A stretch of 7,273 nucleotides of DNA from Cyanobacteria bacterium HKST-UBA02 (GTDB taxonomy: Bacteria > Cyanobacteriota > Vampirovibrionia > Obscuribacterales > Obscuribacteraceae): NCBI GenBank assembly GCA_020431945.1, contig JAGQHH010000625.1, positions 1 through 7,273 of the forward strand, in the 5' to 3' direction. Below, piece by piece: positions 1 through 7,273 of this stretch. The stretch's first letter is position 1. Every line of letters begins with the position of its first letter. The translations under genes were made by a program, and so were the position numbers. The notes under the pieces were generated by a model, which saw only the letters and a program-made list of their open reading frames with translations, had not been told where the DNA came from and made no database searches.

Positions 1-700
1 CGAGAGCCTGCACTGCGGCGATTCTGACCCGCAGATAGTTGTCGTTGAGGGCGGCGGTAAGGGCCGGGACCGCGATCTTCGCATTGCTGTGATAGCGGCT
101 CAGGGCTGATGCTGCAGCGGCGCGCAGGGAGGGAGCATTGTTCGATTTGAGAACATCGACGAGCACTTCGGTGGATCTCGTGTGCAGGGTGGGCCGCTCT
201 TCACGCGCCAGGTGGGCGAGAGCCTCGATGGCTTTTCGCGCTACCGAGACTTCTTTGTCTGTTTTGATGAACTCGATGATGGTGGCTTTCACGTCATCAG
301 TTTTGGGACCGATGTTTCCCAGGGTGGTGATCAGGGCTGACTTGACCTGGTTGTCGTCGCTTGCCTTGAGAATGCCGATGATGGTGCTCAGAGAGGAATC
401 GCTGATCGAAAAGTCCTGGTTGCTCGAAAGGCGCTCCAGGAGCTGGGAGGCTTTGAGCTTGACAGTGGGATCGCTGGTGTCGAGAAGATCGACAAGGGCC
501 TCGGCAGCCTCGGACGGGCGGTCGTGGACCTGGCGCTCGAGCTCGTAAATATCGAGCTGGACGCCCTGGGTATTGGCGCGAATCGCTTTGATGATGCTTT
601 TCACCGGCTCGCTGGACGAAAGACCCGGCGCGGCGGTCGCCGGCTCAGCCAGAAAGGGGGCTCCTGCGGCAATGACAGCCACGATCAATCGCTTTCGCAT
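1..700 (-). CDS. Secreted HEAT-repeat protein, N-terminal part (runs off window)
   Basis: An open frame starts at the ATG at 698-700 and continues past base 1; 233 residues are visible and there is no stop. The N-terminus (MRKRLIVAVIAAGAPFLA, then ATAAP) is a typical Sec signal peptide, with cleavage likely near residue 24. From about residue 66 there are at least five consecutive helical repeats of roughly 30-40 residues (about 66-92, 104-131, 137-165, 176-203, 207-233). Each has the pattern hydrophobic helix, D/N turn, V-R/K, then A-LG/AL, as in ALTAALNDNYLRVRIAAVQAL. This is the HEAT/PBS-lyase-like pattern, normally a protein-binding scaffold without catalysis. A GAGG ribosome binding site lies 8 bases before the ATG. 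Two further ATGs just upstream are out of frame. It lies 78 bases after the beta-propeller gene and could be co-transcribed or use its own promoter. The partner and exact role are unknown. Confidence 0.85.
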   Translation of the reverse strand, partial: MRKRLIVAVIAAGAPFLAEPATAAPGLSSSEPVKSIIKAIRANTQGVQLDIYELERQVHDRPSEAAEALVDLLDTSDPTVKLKASQLLERLSSNQDFSISDSSLSTIIGILKASDDNQVKSALITTLGNIGPKTDDVKATIIEFIKTDKEVSVARKAIEALAHLAREERPTLHTRSTEVLVDVLKSNNAPSLRAAAASALSRYHSNAKIAVPALTAALNDNYLRVRIAAVQAL

Positions 701-728
701 AAGGCAATCCTCATCTCCATCTAGTGGA

Positions 729-758
729 ATGATACCCGTTGAGCCCGGCATCGGTCAG
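729..758 (-). promoter_or_regulatory. Possible sigma-70-type promoter for the HEAT-repeat gene
   Basis: On the minus strand, CTGACC (758-753; 4 of 6 matches to TTGACA) is followed after 18 bases by TATCAT (734-729; 5 of 6 matches to TATAAT). Transcription would start near 722 and give a leader of about 20 bases containing the GAGG ribosome binding site. The -35 element overlaps the inverted repeat at 752-776. This is only a consensus match and could be chance. Confidence 0.3.
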
Positions 759-778: not shown

Positions 779-1936
779 TTATGGCTTGTCCGGAGCGAAC
801 CGGATCAGAAGAGCCCGGGGAAAATAAATCGAGGCATTGTTGAAATGACTTTCCATATCTTTTGTATTGCGGCAATAAGTGACCACGAGAGAGCGCTCCC
901 TGGCGGATAGCTCGCTGTGACCCTTGGCGCTGTAGAGAATGACGTTGTCTTCCTTTTCGGGGCAGTTATAGACCCGTGTGGCGGCGCTCCAGGGACCTTC
1001 CGGGCAGGGCGCTCTGCGGACGGCGATGTCTTTGCTGAATGGAGGCATATAGGCTGCTACCACGCCCTCGATACCCTTCACCCTGCCCACGGACATCTCG
1101 GGTCCGGCGTCCTCGAACAAGATAGTGGCTTTCTCCGGGGTGCTGCTCCAGGTGGCGCCGCCGGCGAAGAATTCCATATTCTTCAGATTCAGCGCGGCAA
1201 GAGAATCACGATCTATACGAGCTAGAATCAGGGGATGGGCGTTCATGCCTGATTTGCGTCTGGGGGCGGTGCAAAAAACGAAGAGATAATTGCCCTGCAG
1301 ATAGCAGGCGGCTCCGGCATGGACCGCTTCCGGGTCCCAGGGGAGGGTGACGGAGCGCTGCTTCCAGTTGGCCGGCTCTTCCTGGGGATTGTCGATGACG
1401 ACGAGATCGTGACCGGCGGTCTCGAACTGGAAGGGCGGGGGAAGCTTCAGGTTGGTGCGAATGCGGTGCAGGAAAACATAGAGCTTGCCGTCCACGAAGG
1501 CGCCATCGCCGGGCCAGACATACTCTTTGTCTTTTGCTTTCCAGATGGAGTCGGGCTTGGGCTTTGACTTGTCCCAGTAGAATGTCAGGTCACCATATTC
1601 GATGCCGGAGGGTTTTGTTTCATCGGCATGGAGCTTTCCCCTGGCGATGGTGTTGTTGATCATGTCTACTTTGATGCGCTTGGAGCCTTCGATGTCACCG
1701 ATCCAGGTGTCTCCGAAAGTCCAGATCGTCTCCTCCAGCCCGATGGGGACCGAGAAGGCGCCGTCGGCTCCGACCCAGCCGTGGTGCTGATCGAAGAGCC
1801 TGTTGAGCTCGGTGAGGGGCTCGACGGATTCGGCTTCGAGGGGTGGGGGAGTCTGGATTAAGTCGGAGCCCGCGCAAAACCCCGGCCCGAGAGACAGGCT
1901 CAGAAGAGCTAATAAGGCGCAAAAAAACAGGGGCAT
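779..1936 (-). CDS. Secreted DUF4185/DUF5005-like beta-propeller protein
   Basis: This 385-residue protein has a hydrophobic N-terminus (about residues 1-22) that looks like a signal peptide, although the annotated start lacks the usual positive charge. The mature part carries motifs I associate with the DUF4185/DUF5005 group, which resemble five-bladed glycosidase-like propellers: GWVGADGAFSVP (53-64), WTFGDTWIG (72-80), MINNT (92-96), WPGDGAFVDGKLYVF (141-155) and a closing YFPRALLIRF (371-380). These suggest exported carbohydrate binding or processing, but no catalytic residues can be assigned. It starts 15 bases after the stop of the triple-AAA protease gene, so the two very likely share a transcript. 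The ribosome binding site is weak. An in-frame CTG three codons upstream (1943-1945) would add Leu/Met-Lys-Pro and give the signal peptide a lysine. The family assignment comes from motif recognition only. Confidence 0.75.
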   Translation of the reverse strand: MPLFFCALLALLSLSLGPGFCAGSDLIQTPPPLEAESVEPLTELNRLFDQHHGWVGADGAFSVPIGLEETIWTFGDTWIGDIEGSKRIKVDMINNTIARGKLHADETKPSGIEYGDLTFYWDKSKPKPDSIWKAKDKEYVWPGDGAFVDGKLYVFLHRIRTNLKLPPPFQFETAGHDLVVIDNPQEEPANWKQRSVTLPWDPEAVHAGAACYLQGNYLFVFCTAPRRKSGMNAHPLILARIDRDSLAALNLKNMEFFAGGATWSSTPEKATILFEDAGPEMSVGRVKGIEGVVAAYMPPFSKDIAVRRAPCPEGPWSAATRVYNCPEKEDNVILYSAKGHSELSARERSLVVTYCRNTKDMESHFNNASIYFPRALLIRFAPDKP

Positions 1937-1951: not shown

Positions 1952-4900
1952 TTACCCGTTGTCTTTACTCTTGTCGGGGTCCGATTCGGCGGTGGCGGGC
2001 GGCGGTGTCTCTTTTCCTGATCCGTTCGTTCCGGACCCGTTCTTGGATTTCTTGCCGGGCTTTCCTTTGCCGACGGTGGCAAGACCGGCAAGGAAGTCCA
2101 CATCGATAACCGGTCTTTGACCGACAAGCTTGCGTTCGGCGAGAGTGGCAATCTCTCTGTCCAGATCTTCCTCTCTGATCTGAGGTTCGAGAATGCGGAC
2201 GATATCCTTGAAGTAGAGGGTTTCTTTCTCGACCAGAGCTGCTGCCATGGTATCTAGCTCTTCGCGTTTGGAGCGCAGAAGCTTCTCTACATTCGCGTAG
2301 CACTCGTCGACAATTTTCTTGATCTCGATCTCTATCTCTCTTTCTGTCTCCGGAGACGCCTTGCCGTCGTTGTCGAAGCCGAATGCGACATTGGTGTTGA
2401 ATTTGAAAGTGCCCATGCCGTAACGGCGTACCATGGCACTGGCTGTGCGGGCGACACTCGACAGGTCGGCGCTGACGCCGGCTGCGTTTGTTTCACGGAA
2501 AATGGTCTCGGCTACGAGACCGCCCAGCCCGACTTCGATTCTTGAGCGGAGCTCGAAAGCGTTCGGCACATGGTGGAAGTTGTCGTCCTTATCCACGGAC
2601 CACATATAGCCGAGAGCGGCGCCGCTGGGCACGATGGTTACTACCTGAATGCGCTCCAGCTCGTTGCGGTAATAGGATACGATCGTGTGCCCGGACTCGT
2701 GATAGGCGGTTTTCCATAGGTCTTTGAGGACCACGTTTTGAGTTCGATGCATGCCGAAGTGGACTCTTTGAATTGCTTGAATCATGTCCACCTGGCTGAC
2801 CGCGGTGCGACCATTGCGAATAGCCGTGAGACCTGCCTCGTTGACTATATTGGCGAGCTCGGCTCCGGCGTCGAACACGGTCATCCTGGCGATTTCCAGG
2901 ATATTGACCGAGTCGTCCAATTCTATGCTCTCCAGATAGTGCTGGAGAATCGCCTCTCGCCCTTCCAGATTCGGCAGAGGAACGTCGATCCGTCGATCGA
3001 ATCTCCCTGGCCGAAGAAGAGCATCATCGAGCATGCCTGGATTATTGGTAGCACCGATGGTGAGTACTTTGTGCTTGCCGAACCCGTCCATTTCTACAAG
3101 AAGCTGGTTTAGAGTCCGGTTTACCTCATTTTGCCCGCCGAAGCCTCTGTCCTTGGTTCGACTGGAGCCCACTGCATCGATCTCGTCGATGAAGACAATG
3201 GCGGGTTTGCCGCTACGCCGTGCTTGTTCGTATATGGCCCTGACTCTCTGGGCACCGAGACCGACCCAGACCTGTACGAAGTCGGTGCCGGCCATGGAGT
3301 AGAACGATACTCCTGCTTCATTGGCGATGGCTTTGGCGAGCATGGTCTTACCGGTGCCGGGCCGACCGACTAGAAGTATTCCCTTGGGGGCTTTGAGACC
3401 GCTTTTCTGGACGATGTCTATGTTTTTAAGCAGCGTCACTACTTCTTTGGCCTCGCTGATGGCCTCGTCCATTCCCTTGACGTCCTCGAGTTTGACATCG
3501 AGGTCTGGTACCTTCGAGAGATTCATACCATCGGTGTTGAGTTTGTGACCGGCTGTCACTGACACGCGGCCTATCGCTTCTTCCAGATCATCAGCGTCGA
3601 TCCGCTTCTTGGCTTTACGAACGGCAAGAATGGCTGCTTCGTTGACGGTAGCTGCTATGTCCGCGCCGGAGAAATTGAAGGACTGCTTTCCGAGCGTTTC
3701 CAGGTCGATATCTTCTTCTACTTTGACCTTCTCGAGATAGGTCTTGAAAATTTTCTCCCTGGCCTCAGCATCGGGAAGAGGTACATATAGTTTGCGATCG
3801 AAGCGACCCGAGCGCAAAAAGGCCGGGTCGAGCTGATTCTCGACATTGGTTGCGCCAATCGTGATCACATTGCTGTGACCGCCGACACCGTCTAGCTCCA
3901 CCAGGATCTGATTGAGTTCGGTGGTACGCTCGTTTCCTGTGTCGCGCATGGTGCCGCCCACGGCATCGATCTCGTCAATGAAGACGATGGCAGCCGGGCT
4001 CTTTCTGGCTTGACTGTAGAGCGAGCGGATTCTAGCTGCCCCTTCGCCTCTGAATGAGCTCTTGAAGTAAGTCGCGGAAAGTCCATAGAAAGGAACTCCG
4101 GCCTCGTTCGCGATGGCTTTGGCAAGCATAGTCTTACCGACTCCAGGCGGGCCGATCATCATGATTCCTTTGGGGAGCTTGGCGCCAATCTGGCGTAGCT
4201 CATCGCCGCGCTTCAGGAAGTCGACAATTTCGCTGATGTCCTGCTTGACGTCGTCGATTCCAATAACGTGCTCCAGCCTGACTTTCGGGTCATGGGTAAT
4301 GAGCTCCACGCCGGAGGTGAGAGTGCGTTCCAGACCGATTGCGATGTTGTCCAGAGCAGTCTTGATCGTGTCCAGGGTGACTTTGTTCGGTCCACCCGGG
4401 CGTCTTGCCAGGAGCGCTGCTTCGTTTACGACGTTGGCGATGTCGGCAGGCGAATAGTTGGCTGTGAGATCCACAAGCTCTTTCATCTCGATATTTTCGT
4501 CATGAGCGACTTTATTCAGGTAGTACTTGAAAATCAGCCCCCGTTCTTCTTCTGTGGGGATCTGGAAGTAAATTCGCCGACTCATCCGGCCCGCTCTTAA
4601 AAGAGCCGGATCGAGCATGCCATCATTATTGGTTGCGCCAATAACCAGCATGCGGGAGCCATGGAAGCCGTCCATCTCGGTGAGTAGAGTATTGAGGGTC
4701 ATATTCATATCTGTCTGACCGCCGAAACCCCGGTCGGCTTGCCGCCGGGCCCCGACCGATTCGATCTCGTCTATGAACAGGATAGCCCTGTCGTGCTGGC
4801 GAAGCTTGGCGAAGAGCATCTTGAGCTTGAGCACTCCGAGACCCATGATCAGTCCGCTGAGACCACCACCCTCGATGACATAGAAGGGCACGCCGACTTC

Positions 4901-5368
4901 GTTGGCGATGGCGCGGGCGAAGATAGTCTTGCCGACTCCGGGAGGACCGATGAAGATCATGCCCTTGGGGACATCGGCGCCGGAGTCCATGTAGTGCTGG
5001 CTGTTAGAGAGAATATCGATAACTTCTTTGATCTCGACTTTGGCTTTGTCATTGCCGATGAGTTCTTCGAGCGTCTGGGGAGCCTTCGGGCTGATAGGCG
5101 GATCTTTGAAAAGAAACGGAAAGAACTTCTTTCCGAATGGCTTGGGAGCTTTGGAATCGGCTCTGGGTGGAAGCGGAAAGAGGATCGAGAGGAGAATATA
5201 GAACTGCATCAAGATGAGCAGGGCACCGAATATAGCGGCGCCGATCAAGTTGATGATCGAGTATTTCAGAAGAGCCGGGAAGGAGGTGAACGGGTTCCAC
5301 CACTGGGCCGTGAGAATCAGGACCACGGTCCATATGATCAAGAGCGTCCAACGGGCCCAATTTTTCAT
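1952..5368 (-). CDS. FtsH-like membrane protease with three AAA+ modules and an M41 peptidase domain
   Basis: This 1138-residue protein has two N-terminal membrane helices (about 7-23 and 38-64) joined by a loop of about 15 residues. Three AAA+ modules follow. Module 1 (about 97-348) has Walker A GPPGVGKT at 141-148, Walker B ILFIDE at 196-201 and arginines R258, R261 and R264. Module 2 (about 363-606) has GPPGVGKT at 406-413, IVFIDE at 461-466 and R519, R522 and R525. Module 3 (about 625-875) has GRPGTGKT at 668-675, IVFIDE at 724-729 and R786, R789 and R792. The M41 domain (about 876-1065) has zinc ligands in HESGH (H890, H894) with catalytic E891, and a probable third ligand D968 in VSADL. 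The C-terminal 38 residues are low-complexity and charged. The predicted role is ATP-dependent extraction and degradation of membrane or misfolded proteins, with the catalytic part in the cytoplasm. Ordinary FtsH is about 610-650 residues with one AAA+ module and a larger periplasmic domain, so this is a variant and not a standard ftsH. AGGA lies 11 bases before the ATG. The beta-propeller gene follows after 15 bases. Confidence 0.95.
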   Translation of the reverse strand: MKNWARWTLLIIWTVVLILTAQWWNPFTSFPALLKYSIINLIGAAIFGALLILMQFYILLSILFPLPPRADSKAPKPFGKKFFPFLFKDPPISPKAPQTLEELIGNDKAKVEIKEVIDILSNSQHYMDSGADVPKGMIFIGPPGVGKTIFARAIANEVGVPFYVIEGGGLSGLIMGLGVLKLKMLFAKLRQHDRAILFIDEIESVGARRQADRGFGGQTDMNMTLNTLLTEMDGFHGSRMLVIGATNNDGMLDPALLRAGRMSRRIYFQIPTEEERGLIFKYYLNKVAHDENIEMKELVDLTANYSPADIANVVNEAALLARRPGGPNKVTLDTIKTALDNIAIGLERTLTSGVELITHDPKVRLEHVIGIDDVKQDISEIVDFLKRGDELRQIGAKLPKGIMMIGPPGVGKTMLAKAIANEAGVPFYGLSATYFKSSFRGEGAARIRSLYSQARKSPAAIVFIDEIDAVGGTMRDTGNERTTELNQILVELDGVGGHSNVITIGATNVENQLDPAFLRSGRFDRKLYVPLPDAEAREKIFKTYLEKVKVEEDIDLETLGKQSFNFSGADIAATVNEAAILAVRKAKKRIDADDLEEAIGRVSVTAGHKLNTDGMNLSKVPDLDVKLEDVKGMDEAISEAKEVVTLLKNIDIVQKSGLKAPKGILLVGRPGTGKTMLAKAIANEAGVSFYSMAGTDFVQVWVGLGAQRVRAIYEQARRSGKPAIVFIDEIDAVGSSRTKDRGFGGQNEVNRTLNQLLVEMDGFGKHKVLTIGATNNPGMLDDALLRPGRFDRRIDVPLPNLEGREAILQHYLESIELDDSVNILEIARMTVFDAGAELANIVNEAGLTAIRNGRTAVSQVDMIQAIQRVHFGMHRTQNVVLKDLWKTAYHESGHTIVSYYRNELERIQVVTIVPSGAALGYMWSVDKDDNFHHVPNAFELRSRIEVGLGGLVAETIFRETNAAGVSADLSSVARTASAMVRRYGMGTFKFNTNVAFGFDNDGKASPETEREIEIEIKKIVDECYANVEKLLRSKREELDTMAAALVEKETLYFKDIVRILEPQIREEDLDREIATLAERKLVGQRPVIDVDFLAGLATVGKGKPGKKSKNGSGTNGSGKETPPPATAESDPDKSKDNG

Positions 5369-5803: not shown

Positions 5804-6304
5804 CTATGACGGATCCCTTGGCTGATTATCCAGAGCGGGCGCCGATTGCGGAATATTGATCTGATTGCGAGCCAGCCAGCCGCGCATGGAATTCTCGTCC
5901 ATGGCGCCTTCATTGGTATCCTGCACATGGCCTTCCTGGAAGATCATAAATGTAGGCACGCCATAGACGTTATATTTGCCCGCCAGTTTAGGGCTCTTTT
6001 CGAGATTGACCTTGCAGATCGTGACCTTGCCCTGTCCCTCATAAGCCAGGGTGCCGAGCACCGGAGCCACCTGCTTGCAGCCCGGGCAGTTGTCGGTATA
6101 GAACTCTACGAGTACCGGATCCCGTGAATCCAGGACATAGCCCTGGAAGGTGCTCTCATCGGTTTCGAAGATGAGTTCCTGACCCCGCAGGGCGGGCTGG
6201 TTGGCGCCCTGGTCATCCTGCAGGGGTTGCACCTTGAAGTTCATGCCGTTGAGTATGGAGCCCACCGCCAGAGCCAGCAGAAACGCGATTACGACCTCTT
6301 TCAT
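5804..6304 (-). CDS. Membrane-anchored thioredoxin-like protein with CPGC active site
   Basis: This 166-residue protein starts with a hydrophobic segment (residues 3-19, after MKE) that is probably an uncleaved signal anchor, because no clear cleavage site follows. A linker of about 25 residues is followed by a thioredoxin fold (about 43-150): VLVEFYTDNCPGCKQVAPVL contains the redox pair C73 and C76, KVTICKVNLEKSP contains an extra C97, and GVPTFMIF contains the usual cis-proline P117. The C-terminal tail (about 151-166) is polar. The likely role is thiol-disulfide exchange or thiol reduction on the outer face of the cytoplasmic membrane. The active site is CPGC, preceded by DN, instead of the usual WCGPC, so its redox potential and partners may differ. 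GAGGA lies 6 bases before the ATG, immediately after the T-tract of an intrinsic terminator, which suggests transcription separate from the upstream FAS1 gene. Confidence 0.88.
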   Translation of the reverse strand: MKEVVIAFLLALAVGSILNGMNFKVQPLQDDQGANQPALRGQELIFETDESTFQGYVLDSRDPVLVEFYTDNCPGCKQVAPVLGTLAYEGQGKVTICKVNLEKSPKLAGKYNVYGVPTFMIFQEGHVQDTNEGAMDENSMRGWLARNQINIPQSAPALDNQPRDPS

Positions 6305-6386: not shown

Positions 6387-6935
6387 TTATTTGCCACGCT
6401 CCGGAACGAGCAGGAAGTCGATCACATGGATGACACCATTGGCGCAATCGACGTCGGGTTTGGTGACGATCGCTCCGTCGACGACCAGGGTCTGACCGTC
6501 GTCTTTGGAATCGATCATCAGGCTCTCGCCCTGGATGGTCTTGATCGAACGCTTCTGAGCGAGATCTTCAGCGCTTACTTTGCCTCTGACCACGTGATAC
6601 TTGAGGATCTCGGGGAGCAGGTCTTTATCGCTGAGAATCTCTTCTCTTCTTTCTTTGGGCAGTTTGCCGAAAGCAGAGTCGCTGGGAGCGAACACTGTGT
6701 ACGGTCCCTTGCCGTGGAGGGTGCGAGCCAGACCCGTAGAAGCGAGGGCGCCGGTGAGGGTATCGAAATCGCCTTCAGACTTGGCGGTCTGAACGATGTC
6801 TTTCTTCTTGCTCACTTGCCGCTTTTTCTTGGCAACGGCCGGTTGCGGGCTGGTCACCTCGATGCCCAGCGTCAAACCAGTGCCCATTACCGAAAGGGCA
6901 AGCAAGCTCATCGCTGCGCGCTTAACGTATTCCAT
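6387..6935 (-). CDS. Secreted fasciclin (FAS1) domain protein
   Basis: This 182-residue protein has an N-terminal signal peptide (MEYVKRAAMSLLALSVMGTG to PAVA, cleavage likely near residue 35), then a lysine-rich stretch (KKKRQVSKKK). A single FAS1 domain fills residues 45-180. The family's conserved blocks are present: TVFAPSDSAF (80-89), YHVV (113-116) and NGVIHVIDFLLVP (166-178). Bacterial FAS1 proteins of this size are usually exported and linked to adhesion or cell-surface interaction. No catalytic activity is expected. I chose the start at 6935 because AAGGAG sits 6 bases upstream; a start 24 codons earlier would place charged and aromatic residues before the signal peptide. An intrinsic terminator follows, and a thioredoxin gene lies 84 bases upstream. 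Confidence 0.92.
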   Translation of the reverse strand: MEYVKRAAMSLLALSVMGTGLTLGIEVTSPQPAVAKKKRQVSKKKDIVQTAKSEGDFDTLTGALASTGLARTLHGKGPYTVFAPSDSAFGKLPKERREEILSDKDLLPEILKYHVVRGKVSAEDLAQKRSIKTIQGESLMIDSKDDGQTLVVDGAIVTKPDVDCANGVIHVIDFLLVPERGK

Positions 6936-7019
6936 CTCGATCTCCTTCTTCTTAACCCAAAAGAAATTACAAACCCGGAAAGTCGCCGGATCTTGTCTGT
7001 CTCCCAAACACTGCCAGTA
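6936..7019 (-). promoter_or_regulatory. FAS1 upstream region with ribosome binding site
   Basis: This is the 84-base gap between the thioredoxin stop and the FAS1 start. AAGGAG at 6947-6942 is a near-perfect ribosome binding site, 6 bases before the ATG, and decides that start. TGTAAT at 6971-6966 (5 of 6 matches to TATAAT) could be a -10 box, but no -35 element is evident at the right distance. A four-base-pair CCGG/CCGG pairing (6975-6989) is too short to be called a terminator. Co-transcription with the thioredoxin gene therefore remains possible. Confidence 0.45.
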
Positions 7020-7273
7020 CTAGACGTGCTTGTTGATAGCTGTCGTCAGTTTGGATTTCGGAACCGCACCGACAACCTGCTCTACTACCTGGCCTTGCTT
7101 GAAGAGATAAAGGCTAGGTATGCCTCTGATATGGTATGCCTGGGCAGTTTTCGGATTCTCGTCGGTATTAACCTTGACGACTTTGATTTTGCCCTCGAAA
7201 TCCTTGGACAGATCCTCGACGATGGGAGCCACCGCTTTGCAAGGACCGCACCAAGGAGCCCAGAAGTCGACCA
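7020..7273 (-). CDS. trxA: Thioredoxin, classical WCGPC type (5' end outside window)
   Basis: The visible 83 residues and stop codon cover the thioredoxin fold from just before the active site to the C-terminus; about 20-25 N-terminal residues should lie beyond the window. The redox motif WCGPC is encoded at 7239-7253, preceded by [17 protein letters not shown], the cis-proline segment RGIPSLYLF and [10 protein letters not shown] follow in the expected order. The family reduces protein disulfides in the cytoplasm, recharged by thioredoxin reductase. The VKVNTDENP and [10 protein letters not shown] segments are very like cyanobacterial m-type thioredoxins as I recall them. An internal GTG at 7230-7232 is not a plausible start, because it would remove the active site. 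Confidence 0.95.

What the first reader, a model, noticed from the sequence alone, without database searches (positions are those of the whole stretch)
1952..5368. FtsH-like protease with three tandem AAA+ modules on one M41 domain
The translation shows three complete AAA+ modules in one chain (Walker A at residues 141, 406 and 668), then a single intact HESGH metallopeptidase domain. Known FtsH proteins have one AAA+ module per peptidase. All three modules keep the Walker B acidic pair and the arginine-finger positions, so all may hydrolyse ATP. Two assemblies are conceivable: six chains forming three stacked rings over a peptidase ring, or two chains whose six modules make one pseudo-hexameric ring with only two peptidase domains. 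Either would be a new layout for an ATP-dependent membrane protease.
Basis: partly seen in the sequence, partly recalled or inferred. Interest (0 to 1): 0.85.

Follow-up and report, generated by a model that had tools for sequence, protein, structure and literature searches.

The report
Membrane protease with three motor modules
A bacterial membrane protease of the FtsH family carries three ATP-driven motor modules in one chain instead of the usual one; the layout is real and conserved, and the modules most likely stack as three rings above the cutting ring.

Summary
Window 1952-5368 (-) encodes 1138 aa: an N-terminal membrane anchor, three complete AAA modules (Walker A at 141, 406, 668) and one M41 peptidase domain (HESGH, 890). 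It is no artefact: 50 of 53 genomes of one bacterial order carry it (named relatives: Candidatus Obscuribacterales), at least some beside ordinary one-AAA FtsH. 'One AAA per peptidase' is not a rule in sequence databases: FtsH-like chains with 2, 3, 4 and 6 AAA modules occur in Omnitrophota, with 2 and 3 in Actinobacteriota, 3 in Chloroflexota, 4 in unnamed relatives. A module tree suggests that modules multiplied separately in at least three lineages. In the window's family all three ATPase sites are conserved; module 3 keeps a near-invariant pore tryptophan, module 2's pore loop is variable. A thioredoxin-like gene and a small membrane-protein gene usually lie upstream. My literature searches listed no description of tandem-AAA FtsH. 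New variant of a known kind.

The parts
1952..5368 (-). ORF of the three-AAA FtsH-like membrane protease, 1138 aa
5297..5362 (-). predicted membrane helix 1 (residues 3-24)
   Evidence: AF2 helix; the hydropathy scan flagged only residues 46-64, so that this helix crosses the membrane is the less certain
5180..5281 (-). predicted membrane helix 2 (residues 30-63); only a short loop lies between the two helices
4340..5077 (-). AAA module 1 (residues 98-343); Walker A 141-148 (window 4925-4948); pore loop LIMG
3557..4285 (-). AAA module 2 (residues 362-604); Walker A 406-413 (window 4130-4153); pore loop SFRG
2759..3499 (-). AAA module 3 (residues 624-870); Walker A 668-675 (window 3344-3367); pore loop VWVG
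2195..2713 (-). Peptidase M41 domain (residues 886-1058)
2687..2701 (-). zinc motif HESGH (residues 890-894); D968, invariant in the 22 sequences, is the likely third ligand (role recalled)
5804..6304 (-). upstream gene: thioredoxin-like protein with an N-terminal hydrophobic stretch (166 aa, CPGC)
   Evidence: Pfam Thioredoxin; a relative lies within three called ORFs upstream on the same strand in 17 of 18 loci (window included), and seven ORFs away in L190
5431..5658 (-). upstream gene: small protein with an N-terminal hydrophobic stretch (75 aa), directly before the protease
   Evidence: chosen by position and aligned with the equivalent small ORF of 14 other loci; 12 of 18 loci cluster by BLAST, the window's copy aligning only weakly; no Pfam match

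Best explanation
It is a membrane-anchored, FtsH-type AAA zinc metalloprotease whose AAA module has been triplicated within the gene. Six chains most likely assemble into three stacked AAA rings (module 1 nearest the membrane, then 2, then 3) above one M41 peptidase ring, as if a p97/Cdc48-like double ring had been built into FtsH between the membrane and the ordinary AAA-M41 unit. Substrate would enter at the membrane side, be pulled through the rings in order, and be cut in the M41 chamber. Ring 3 (pore tryptophan, FtsH-type contact to M41) is the main driver; ring 1 (conserved pore loop, usually Ile or Phe) and ring 2 (variable pore loop) probably grip, gate or add processivity, all three hydrolysing ATP. 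The upstream thioredoxin-like and small proteins probably act as adaptors or regulators. Shown: domain content, conserved active-site motifs, distribution, gene neighbourhood. Predicted: pairwise stacked geometry. Inferred: hexamer, three-ring stack, substrate path, roles of the rings and partners.
For: Domain content and intact sites. In 145 family members the key residues of modules 1 and 3 are intact in 145 of 145 and of module 2 in 144 of 145 (one further row, P0014, was dropped because only two modules passed the length filter). AF2 model of the whole chain (pLDDT 83.6, pTM 0.67): modules 2+3 superpose as one unit on Cdc48 D1-D2 (8ub4_E 473 residues, 2.9 A; 6omb_E 482 residues, 2.9 A), module 3 + M41 on FtsH/YME1 (7wi4_A 393 residues, 2.8 A; 6az0 430 residues, 3.4 A). 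AF2 of residues 1-612: modules 1+2 superpose on p97/Cdc48 D1-D2 (6chs_D 503 residues, 3.4 A; 7rlh_A 502 residues, 3.6 A). Gaps between module matches are 18-22 residues. Co-loss test over 288 chains with two or more AAA modules and at most one HExGH (283 with one, 5 with none, of which P0158 and P0163 read HEAAH), 883 modules: 12 modules have lost Walker A K or Walker B D/E; 9 of these 12 have lost SRH R1 in the same module, and in 0 of 12 has a neighbour lost R1; 13 modules in all have lost R1 and 0 of 13 have a neighbour with a dead site, as homotypic rings predict. Four-AAA chains exist: 29 of 340 sequences, 27 of them with one HExGH (many are near-copies); Pfam confirms P0122 and P0172. 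No simple single pseudo-hexamer fits four. Upstream genes.
Against: No hexamer was modelled and no PAE was available; AF2 may place tandem AAA modules p97-like out of training habit. In the whole-chain search the rows for module 1 are mostly single-domain matches; one row, 8ooi_A, spans 97-715 at 5.6 A. The model of residues 1-612 has pTM 0.51, its linker (about 345-360) is low in confidence, and 11 of the 50 rows shown span both modules, the best-scoring rows being single-domain. The co-loss test was thought of after the degenerate modules were seen, its cases lie in relatives and, but for one sequence (P0201, Walker B E to V, R1 kept), not in the window's family, and they rest on about three independent losses; 3 of the 12 dead-site modules keep R1, and 4 modules lost R1 with Walker A and B intact. 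In 27 of 145 family members module 2 has a gap at the pore aromatic position, so ring 2 may not pull at all.
Confidence: 0.62

Rival explanations
1. Stacked rings, but only ring 3 translocates; rings 1 and 2 are an ATP-regulated gate, holdase or spacer that sets how substrates leave the membrane. This differs from the best explanation in the role of rings 1 and 2, not in assembly.
For: Pore position is W in 143 of 145 module 3, but I in 102 and F in 42 of 145 module 1, and widely variable with 27 of 145 gaps in module 2. In nine Omnitrophota-type relatives the middle module has lost its Walker B residues.
Against: In the window's family all three nucleotide sites are conserved at 144-145 of 145, which suggests hydrolysis in each.
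Confidence: 0.2
2. Two chains make one pseudo-hexameric AAA ring (1-2-3-1-2-3) with only two peptidase domains, dynein-like in principle.
For: Chains with 1, 2, 3 and 6 modules exist and all divide six; the six-module chain L178 could be a whole ring by itself.
Against: Four-module chains in Omnitrophota and in at least one other, unnamed lineage, though three such chains could still make two rings; Arg-finger loss stays within the dead module, not in the neighbour; predicted neighbours superpose on p97 D1-D2.
Confidence: 0.08
3. The three-AAA chain does not act alone but mixes with the one-AAA FtsH of the same cell into hetero-hexamers.
For: One-AAA FtsH is present beside it (G001 has one of each; rows of other genomes); cyanobacterial FtsH hetero-hexamers are described (passages of PMC8047818 seen).
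Against: Mixed stacks would leave rings 1 and 2 incomplete; module 3 does not group with the four one-AAA FtsH modules of the same order in the tree.
Confidence: 0.08
4. Assembly artefact or fused neighbouring genes.
For: None found.
Against: 50 of 53 genomes of the order; one open frame with conserved linkers.
Confidence: 0.01

Closest known systems
FtsH / YME1 / AFG3L2 (M41 AAA proteases)
   Same: Membrane anchor, FtsH-type AAA module followed by M41 with HExGH; NCBIfam FtsH_fam TIGR01241 above its cut-off; module 3 + M41 superposes on FtsH
   Different: Three AAA modules, not one; only a short loop between the two predicted membrane helices, where classical FtsH has a domain (recalled)
p97/VCP/Cdc48 (tandem D1-D2 AAA unfoldase)
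   Same: Neighbouring AAA modules of the models superpose on D1-D2; AAA modules with SRH arginines
   Different: Three modules, membrane-anchored, peptidase in the same chain; a p97 N domain is not among the Pfam families shown (25 of 46)
Uncharacterised tandem-AAA FtsH-like proteins of Omnitrophota, Actinobacteriota and Chloroflexota (found here)
   Same: Two to six AAA modules before one M41
   Different: Modules group by lineage rather than by position, so probably amplified separately; P0264 (Chloroflexota) and P0172 (unnamed) have two hydrophobic stretches about 100 residues apart
FtsH double proteins (31 of P0232-P0263; some named dinoflagellates: Durusdinium, Polarella, Symbiodinium)
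   Same: More than one AAA in an M41 protein
   Different: Two AAA-M41 units in one chain, two HExGH

Membership tests
FtsH / peptidase M41 AAA protease | M41 domain with HExGH zinc motif | tested here: met
   PF01434 at 886-1058, HESGH 890
FtsH / peptidase M41 AAA protease | FtsH-type AAA module directly before M41 | tested here: met
   TIGR01241 best stretch 623-1055; 1001.4 bits for the whole protein (summed over three stretches) against cut-off 600
FtsH / peptidase M41 AAA protease | N-terminal membrane anchor | tested here: met
   by prediction only: helices 3-24 and 30-63; hydropathy clear only for 46-64
FtsH / peptidase M41 AAA protease | a single AAA module per chain (as described in the passages seen) | tested here: not met
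   three; so it is an M41 AAA protease but not of the described one-AAA layout
FtsH / peptidase M41 AAA protease | hexamer with ATP-dependent proteolysis | not testable with these tools
   needs purified protein
p97/Cdc48 | stacked tandem AAA geometry | tested here: met
   in predicted models only
p97/Cdc48 | curated family model CDC48 (TIGR01243) over its cut-off | tested here: not met
   551.3 bits, cut-off 802.65

The most novel reading that the evidence does not exclude
The number of AAA rings stacked on a membrane metalloprotease is an evolvable dial: separate lineages built FtsH-type machines with two, three, four and even six AAA tiers over one M41 ring, the window's being a three-tier machine with all tiers ATPase-competent and a dedicated thioredoxin-like membrane partner.
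Probability: 0.55. Interest if true: 0.78.

Novelty: new variant of a known kind. Interest (0 to 1): 0.6.

Why it matters
AAA proteases as reviewed (passages of PMC7226402) have one or two AAA modules per motor subunit, FtsH one. A natural set of FtsH-type proteins with one to six AAA modules and the same peptidase gives a ready series to ask what extra rings buy: pulling force, processivity, gating or extraction from membranes. The degenerate-module relatives are natural controls with one ring probably switched off.

Tried and rejected
Divisors-of-six idea: after seeing 1, 2, 3 and 6 modules per chain I thought the count might betray a pseudo-hexamer; one search showed four-module chains, so it was dropped. 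A single shared origin of the last modules was tested and rejected: last modules of the window's family with the Omnitrophota last modules, AU p 1.4e-6; with the Actinobacteriota/Chloroflexota-group last modules, p 5.2e-5; gene conversion within lineages could also give this. Omnitrophota against the Actinobacteriota group was not tested. Seven of 122 rows were dropped between the trees: three modules of P0177 (two flagged as long branches), the decayed module 2 of three Omnitrophota three-AAA chains (P0163's flagged for odd composition) and module 2 of P0126. The two modules of the two-AAA type L143/L144 grouped together but not. PLSDB plasmids: no match. In structure searches no solved three-AAA FtsH was among the rows shown. 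Literature: searches (20 of 40 papers listed), 85 and 86 in the open-licence PMC library listed no paper that, from title and start of abstract, describes an FtsH with more than one AAA module; I saw passages only of PMC7226402, PMC8047818 and PMC2674469, which describe FtsH with one AAA. Most subscription papers are missing from that library and preprints of bioRxiv are not held as such. Not done: hexamer modelling, PAE, expression data.

Full report
What is there. The minus-strand ORF 1952-5368 encodes 1138 aa. Pfam finds AAA in three stretches, AAA_lid_3 in three, and M41 once at 886-1058. A home-made AAA-module HMM places the modules at 98-343, 362-604 and 624-870, with Walker A Lys/Thr, Walker B Asp-Glu, sensor-1 Asn and both SRH arginines in each. 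AF2 gives two N-terminal helices, 3-24 and 30-63, with only a short turn between them, so the domain that classical FtsH has there (recalled) is missing.

Is it real. A protein search listed 120 relatives (a capped list) of 1043-1206 aa at 63-94% identity; all 120 have at least three Walker A motifs and a HExxH. Names given include Candidatus Obscuribacterales and several cyanobacterial MAG labels; locus L001 is titled a Melainabacteria MAG. The genome searches name no groups; in the order that contains both G470 and G001 (the genome of L001), 50 of 53 genomes carry the three-AAA protein, whole or in contig-end pieces; G388, G419 and G471 do not show it. In 382 genomes of the class, drawn from a larger group, the same 50 carry it, and the next matches drop to 445.6 bits and map to module 3 + M41 only. 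G001 also has a 673-aa frame with M41, an ordinary FtsH. The window's own genome is not held, so its place in this order is inferred from P0001 (94% identical, unnamed) and P0002 (82%, Candidatus Obscuribacterales).

Wider distribution. An Omnitrophota contig end (L002; three Walker A motifs, no M41 seen) led to a search of 237 genomes of that phylum: 10 have matches well above the one-AAA level (weaker tandem forms could be missed). Counting motifs gave two AAA in seven of them (G673, G700, G702, G717, G730, G696, G810), three in G782 with a decayed middle module and HEAAH, at least three in the contig-end G002, and six in G693, a 1903-aa single ORF with one HEAGH. Pfam confirms AAA in six, four, four, three and two stretches with one M41 in L178, P0122, P0172, P0264 and L180. 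Two further protein searches brought four-AAA proteins named from Omnitrophota (P0126, P0127, P0134) or unnamed (the P0172 and P0175 types), and three-AAA proteins named from Omnitrophota, Acidimicrobiales, Thermoleophilaceae, Solirubrobacterales, Mycobacteriales and Chloroflexota. Over 340 sequences (312 proteins of the three searches, the window, and 27 locus proteins), the HMM counted 3 modules in 248, 2 in 46, 4 in 29, 1 in 16 and 6 in one. The 46 include 34 chains with two HExGH and 2 Cdc48-like controls, so 10 are true two-AAA one-M41 chains; the 16 are the chosen one-AAA controls. Group searches around a record titled Solirubrobacterales (class of G826) and one titled Actinomycetes (phylum of G825) found strong matches in only 6 of 249 and 3 of 296 genomes at E <= 1e-150 (the two sets overlap). 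Of these nine genomes, modules were counted in seven: three AAA in G952, two in G935, G1054, G1006, G1239, G1205 and G1210; G905, G915 and a second locus of G1205 were not resolved. So the layout is sporadic there and near-universal in the window's order.

Origin. In a tree of 115 modules the 21 modules of the window's family fall on one side of a branch (94/64, 96% of bootstrap trees; not starred), the 32 Omnitrophota tandem modules form one group (100/100), and the 23 modules of the Actinobacteriota/Chloroflexota group, which include the unnamed four-AAA P0175 and P0244, another (94/89). Grouping the last modules of the window's family with the last modules of either other lineage is rejected. 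So the amplification probably happened separately in at least three lineages, or module sequences were homogenised within lineages.

Assembly. Three lines favour stacked homotypic rings. First, predicted geometry: modules 2+3 of the whole-chain model and modules 1+2 of a second model each superpose as one unit on the D1-D2 tandem of Cdc48/p97, and module 3 + M41 on FtsH. Second, four-module chains occur in Omnitrophota and outside it. Third, co-loss: Arg fingers act on the neighbouring subunit's ATP (recalled, established for AAA proteins), so in a homotypic ring a dead module no longer needs its own Arg finger, whereas in a mixed ring it must keep it for the next module. In 288 chains and 883 modules, 9 of 12 dead modules lost R1 too, in none of the 12 cases did a neighbour lose R1, and none of the 13 R1-less modules has a neighbour with a dead site. 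Against: 3 of 12 keep R1; 4 modules lost R1 with Walker motifs intact; the losses are few in origin; the test came after seeing part of the data; and only one case (P0201, R1 kept) is in the window's own family. The AF2 interdomain placement carries no PAE and the second model has pTM 0.51.

Roles of the rings. In 145 family members the pore position is Trp in 143 of module 3; Ile 102, Phe 42, Val 1 in module 1; and in module 2 mainly Phe 48, Trp 40 or Tyr 15 but a gap in 27. Ring 3 therefore looks like the main pulling ring; rings 1 and 2 are less certain.

Neighbourhood. I compared 18 loci (window, L001, L185-L200). A thioredoxin-fold gene of one cluster lies within three called ORFs upstream on the same strand in 17 of 18, and seven ORFs away in L190; the cluster also contains short soluble thioredoxins further up. 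The ORF directly before the protease is usually a small protein with an N-terminal hydrophobic stretch: 12 of 18 loci cluster by BLAST, and 15 rows chosen by position, the window included, were aligned, the window's only weakly. The thioredoxin-like member lacks CxxC in L001, L185, L187, L190, L193 and L196, so a binding rather than redox role is possible. Downstream DUF4185 and HEAT genes recur in only 3 and 2 of 18 loci, the window counted.

Verdict. The layout is real, conserved and, by the searches named, undescribed; it is a new variant of the FtsH family and part of a wider set of tandem-AAA FtsH proteins.

Noticed in passing
L178:190-5901 (G693:C1): Omnitrophota ORF of 1903 aa with six AAA modules, all with Walker A and SRH arginines, and one HEAGH M41 domain (on its near-identical P0121, 88).
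   Followed up: partly
L143, L144 (G446, G443): A second tandem FtsH type in the same order: two AAA modules, M41, and in L144 two hydrophobic stretches about 150 residues apart.
   Followed up: partly
P0142, P0156-P0163; L179: Three-AAA chains of Omnitrophota type whose middle module has lost Walker B and sensor-1 residues; P0158 and P0163 (the protein of L179) also read HEAAH in place of HExGH.
   Followed up: partly
P0300: 1905-aa protein with six Walker A-like motifs, four full-length AAA modules and no HExGH.
   Followed up: no
P0232-P0263 except P0244: Proteins with two AAA-M41 units in one chain, some named from dinoflagellates (Durusdinium, Polarella, Symbiodinium).
   Followed up: no
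L146, L147: Genomes of the same order also encode Cdc48-like two-AAA proteins of about 730 aa without HExGH.
   Followed up: no
L156: Two FtsH-like genes in direct tandem in G472.
   Followed up: no
window 6387-7007 and 7020-7271 (-): A fasciclin-domain protein and a further thioredoxin (cut by the window end) upstream of the thioredoxin-like gene.
   Followed up: no
window 779-1936 and 2-751 (-): DUF4185 and HEAT-repeat genes downstream on the same strand, recurring in only 3 and 2 of 18 loci.
   Followed up: partly
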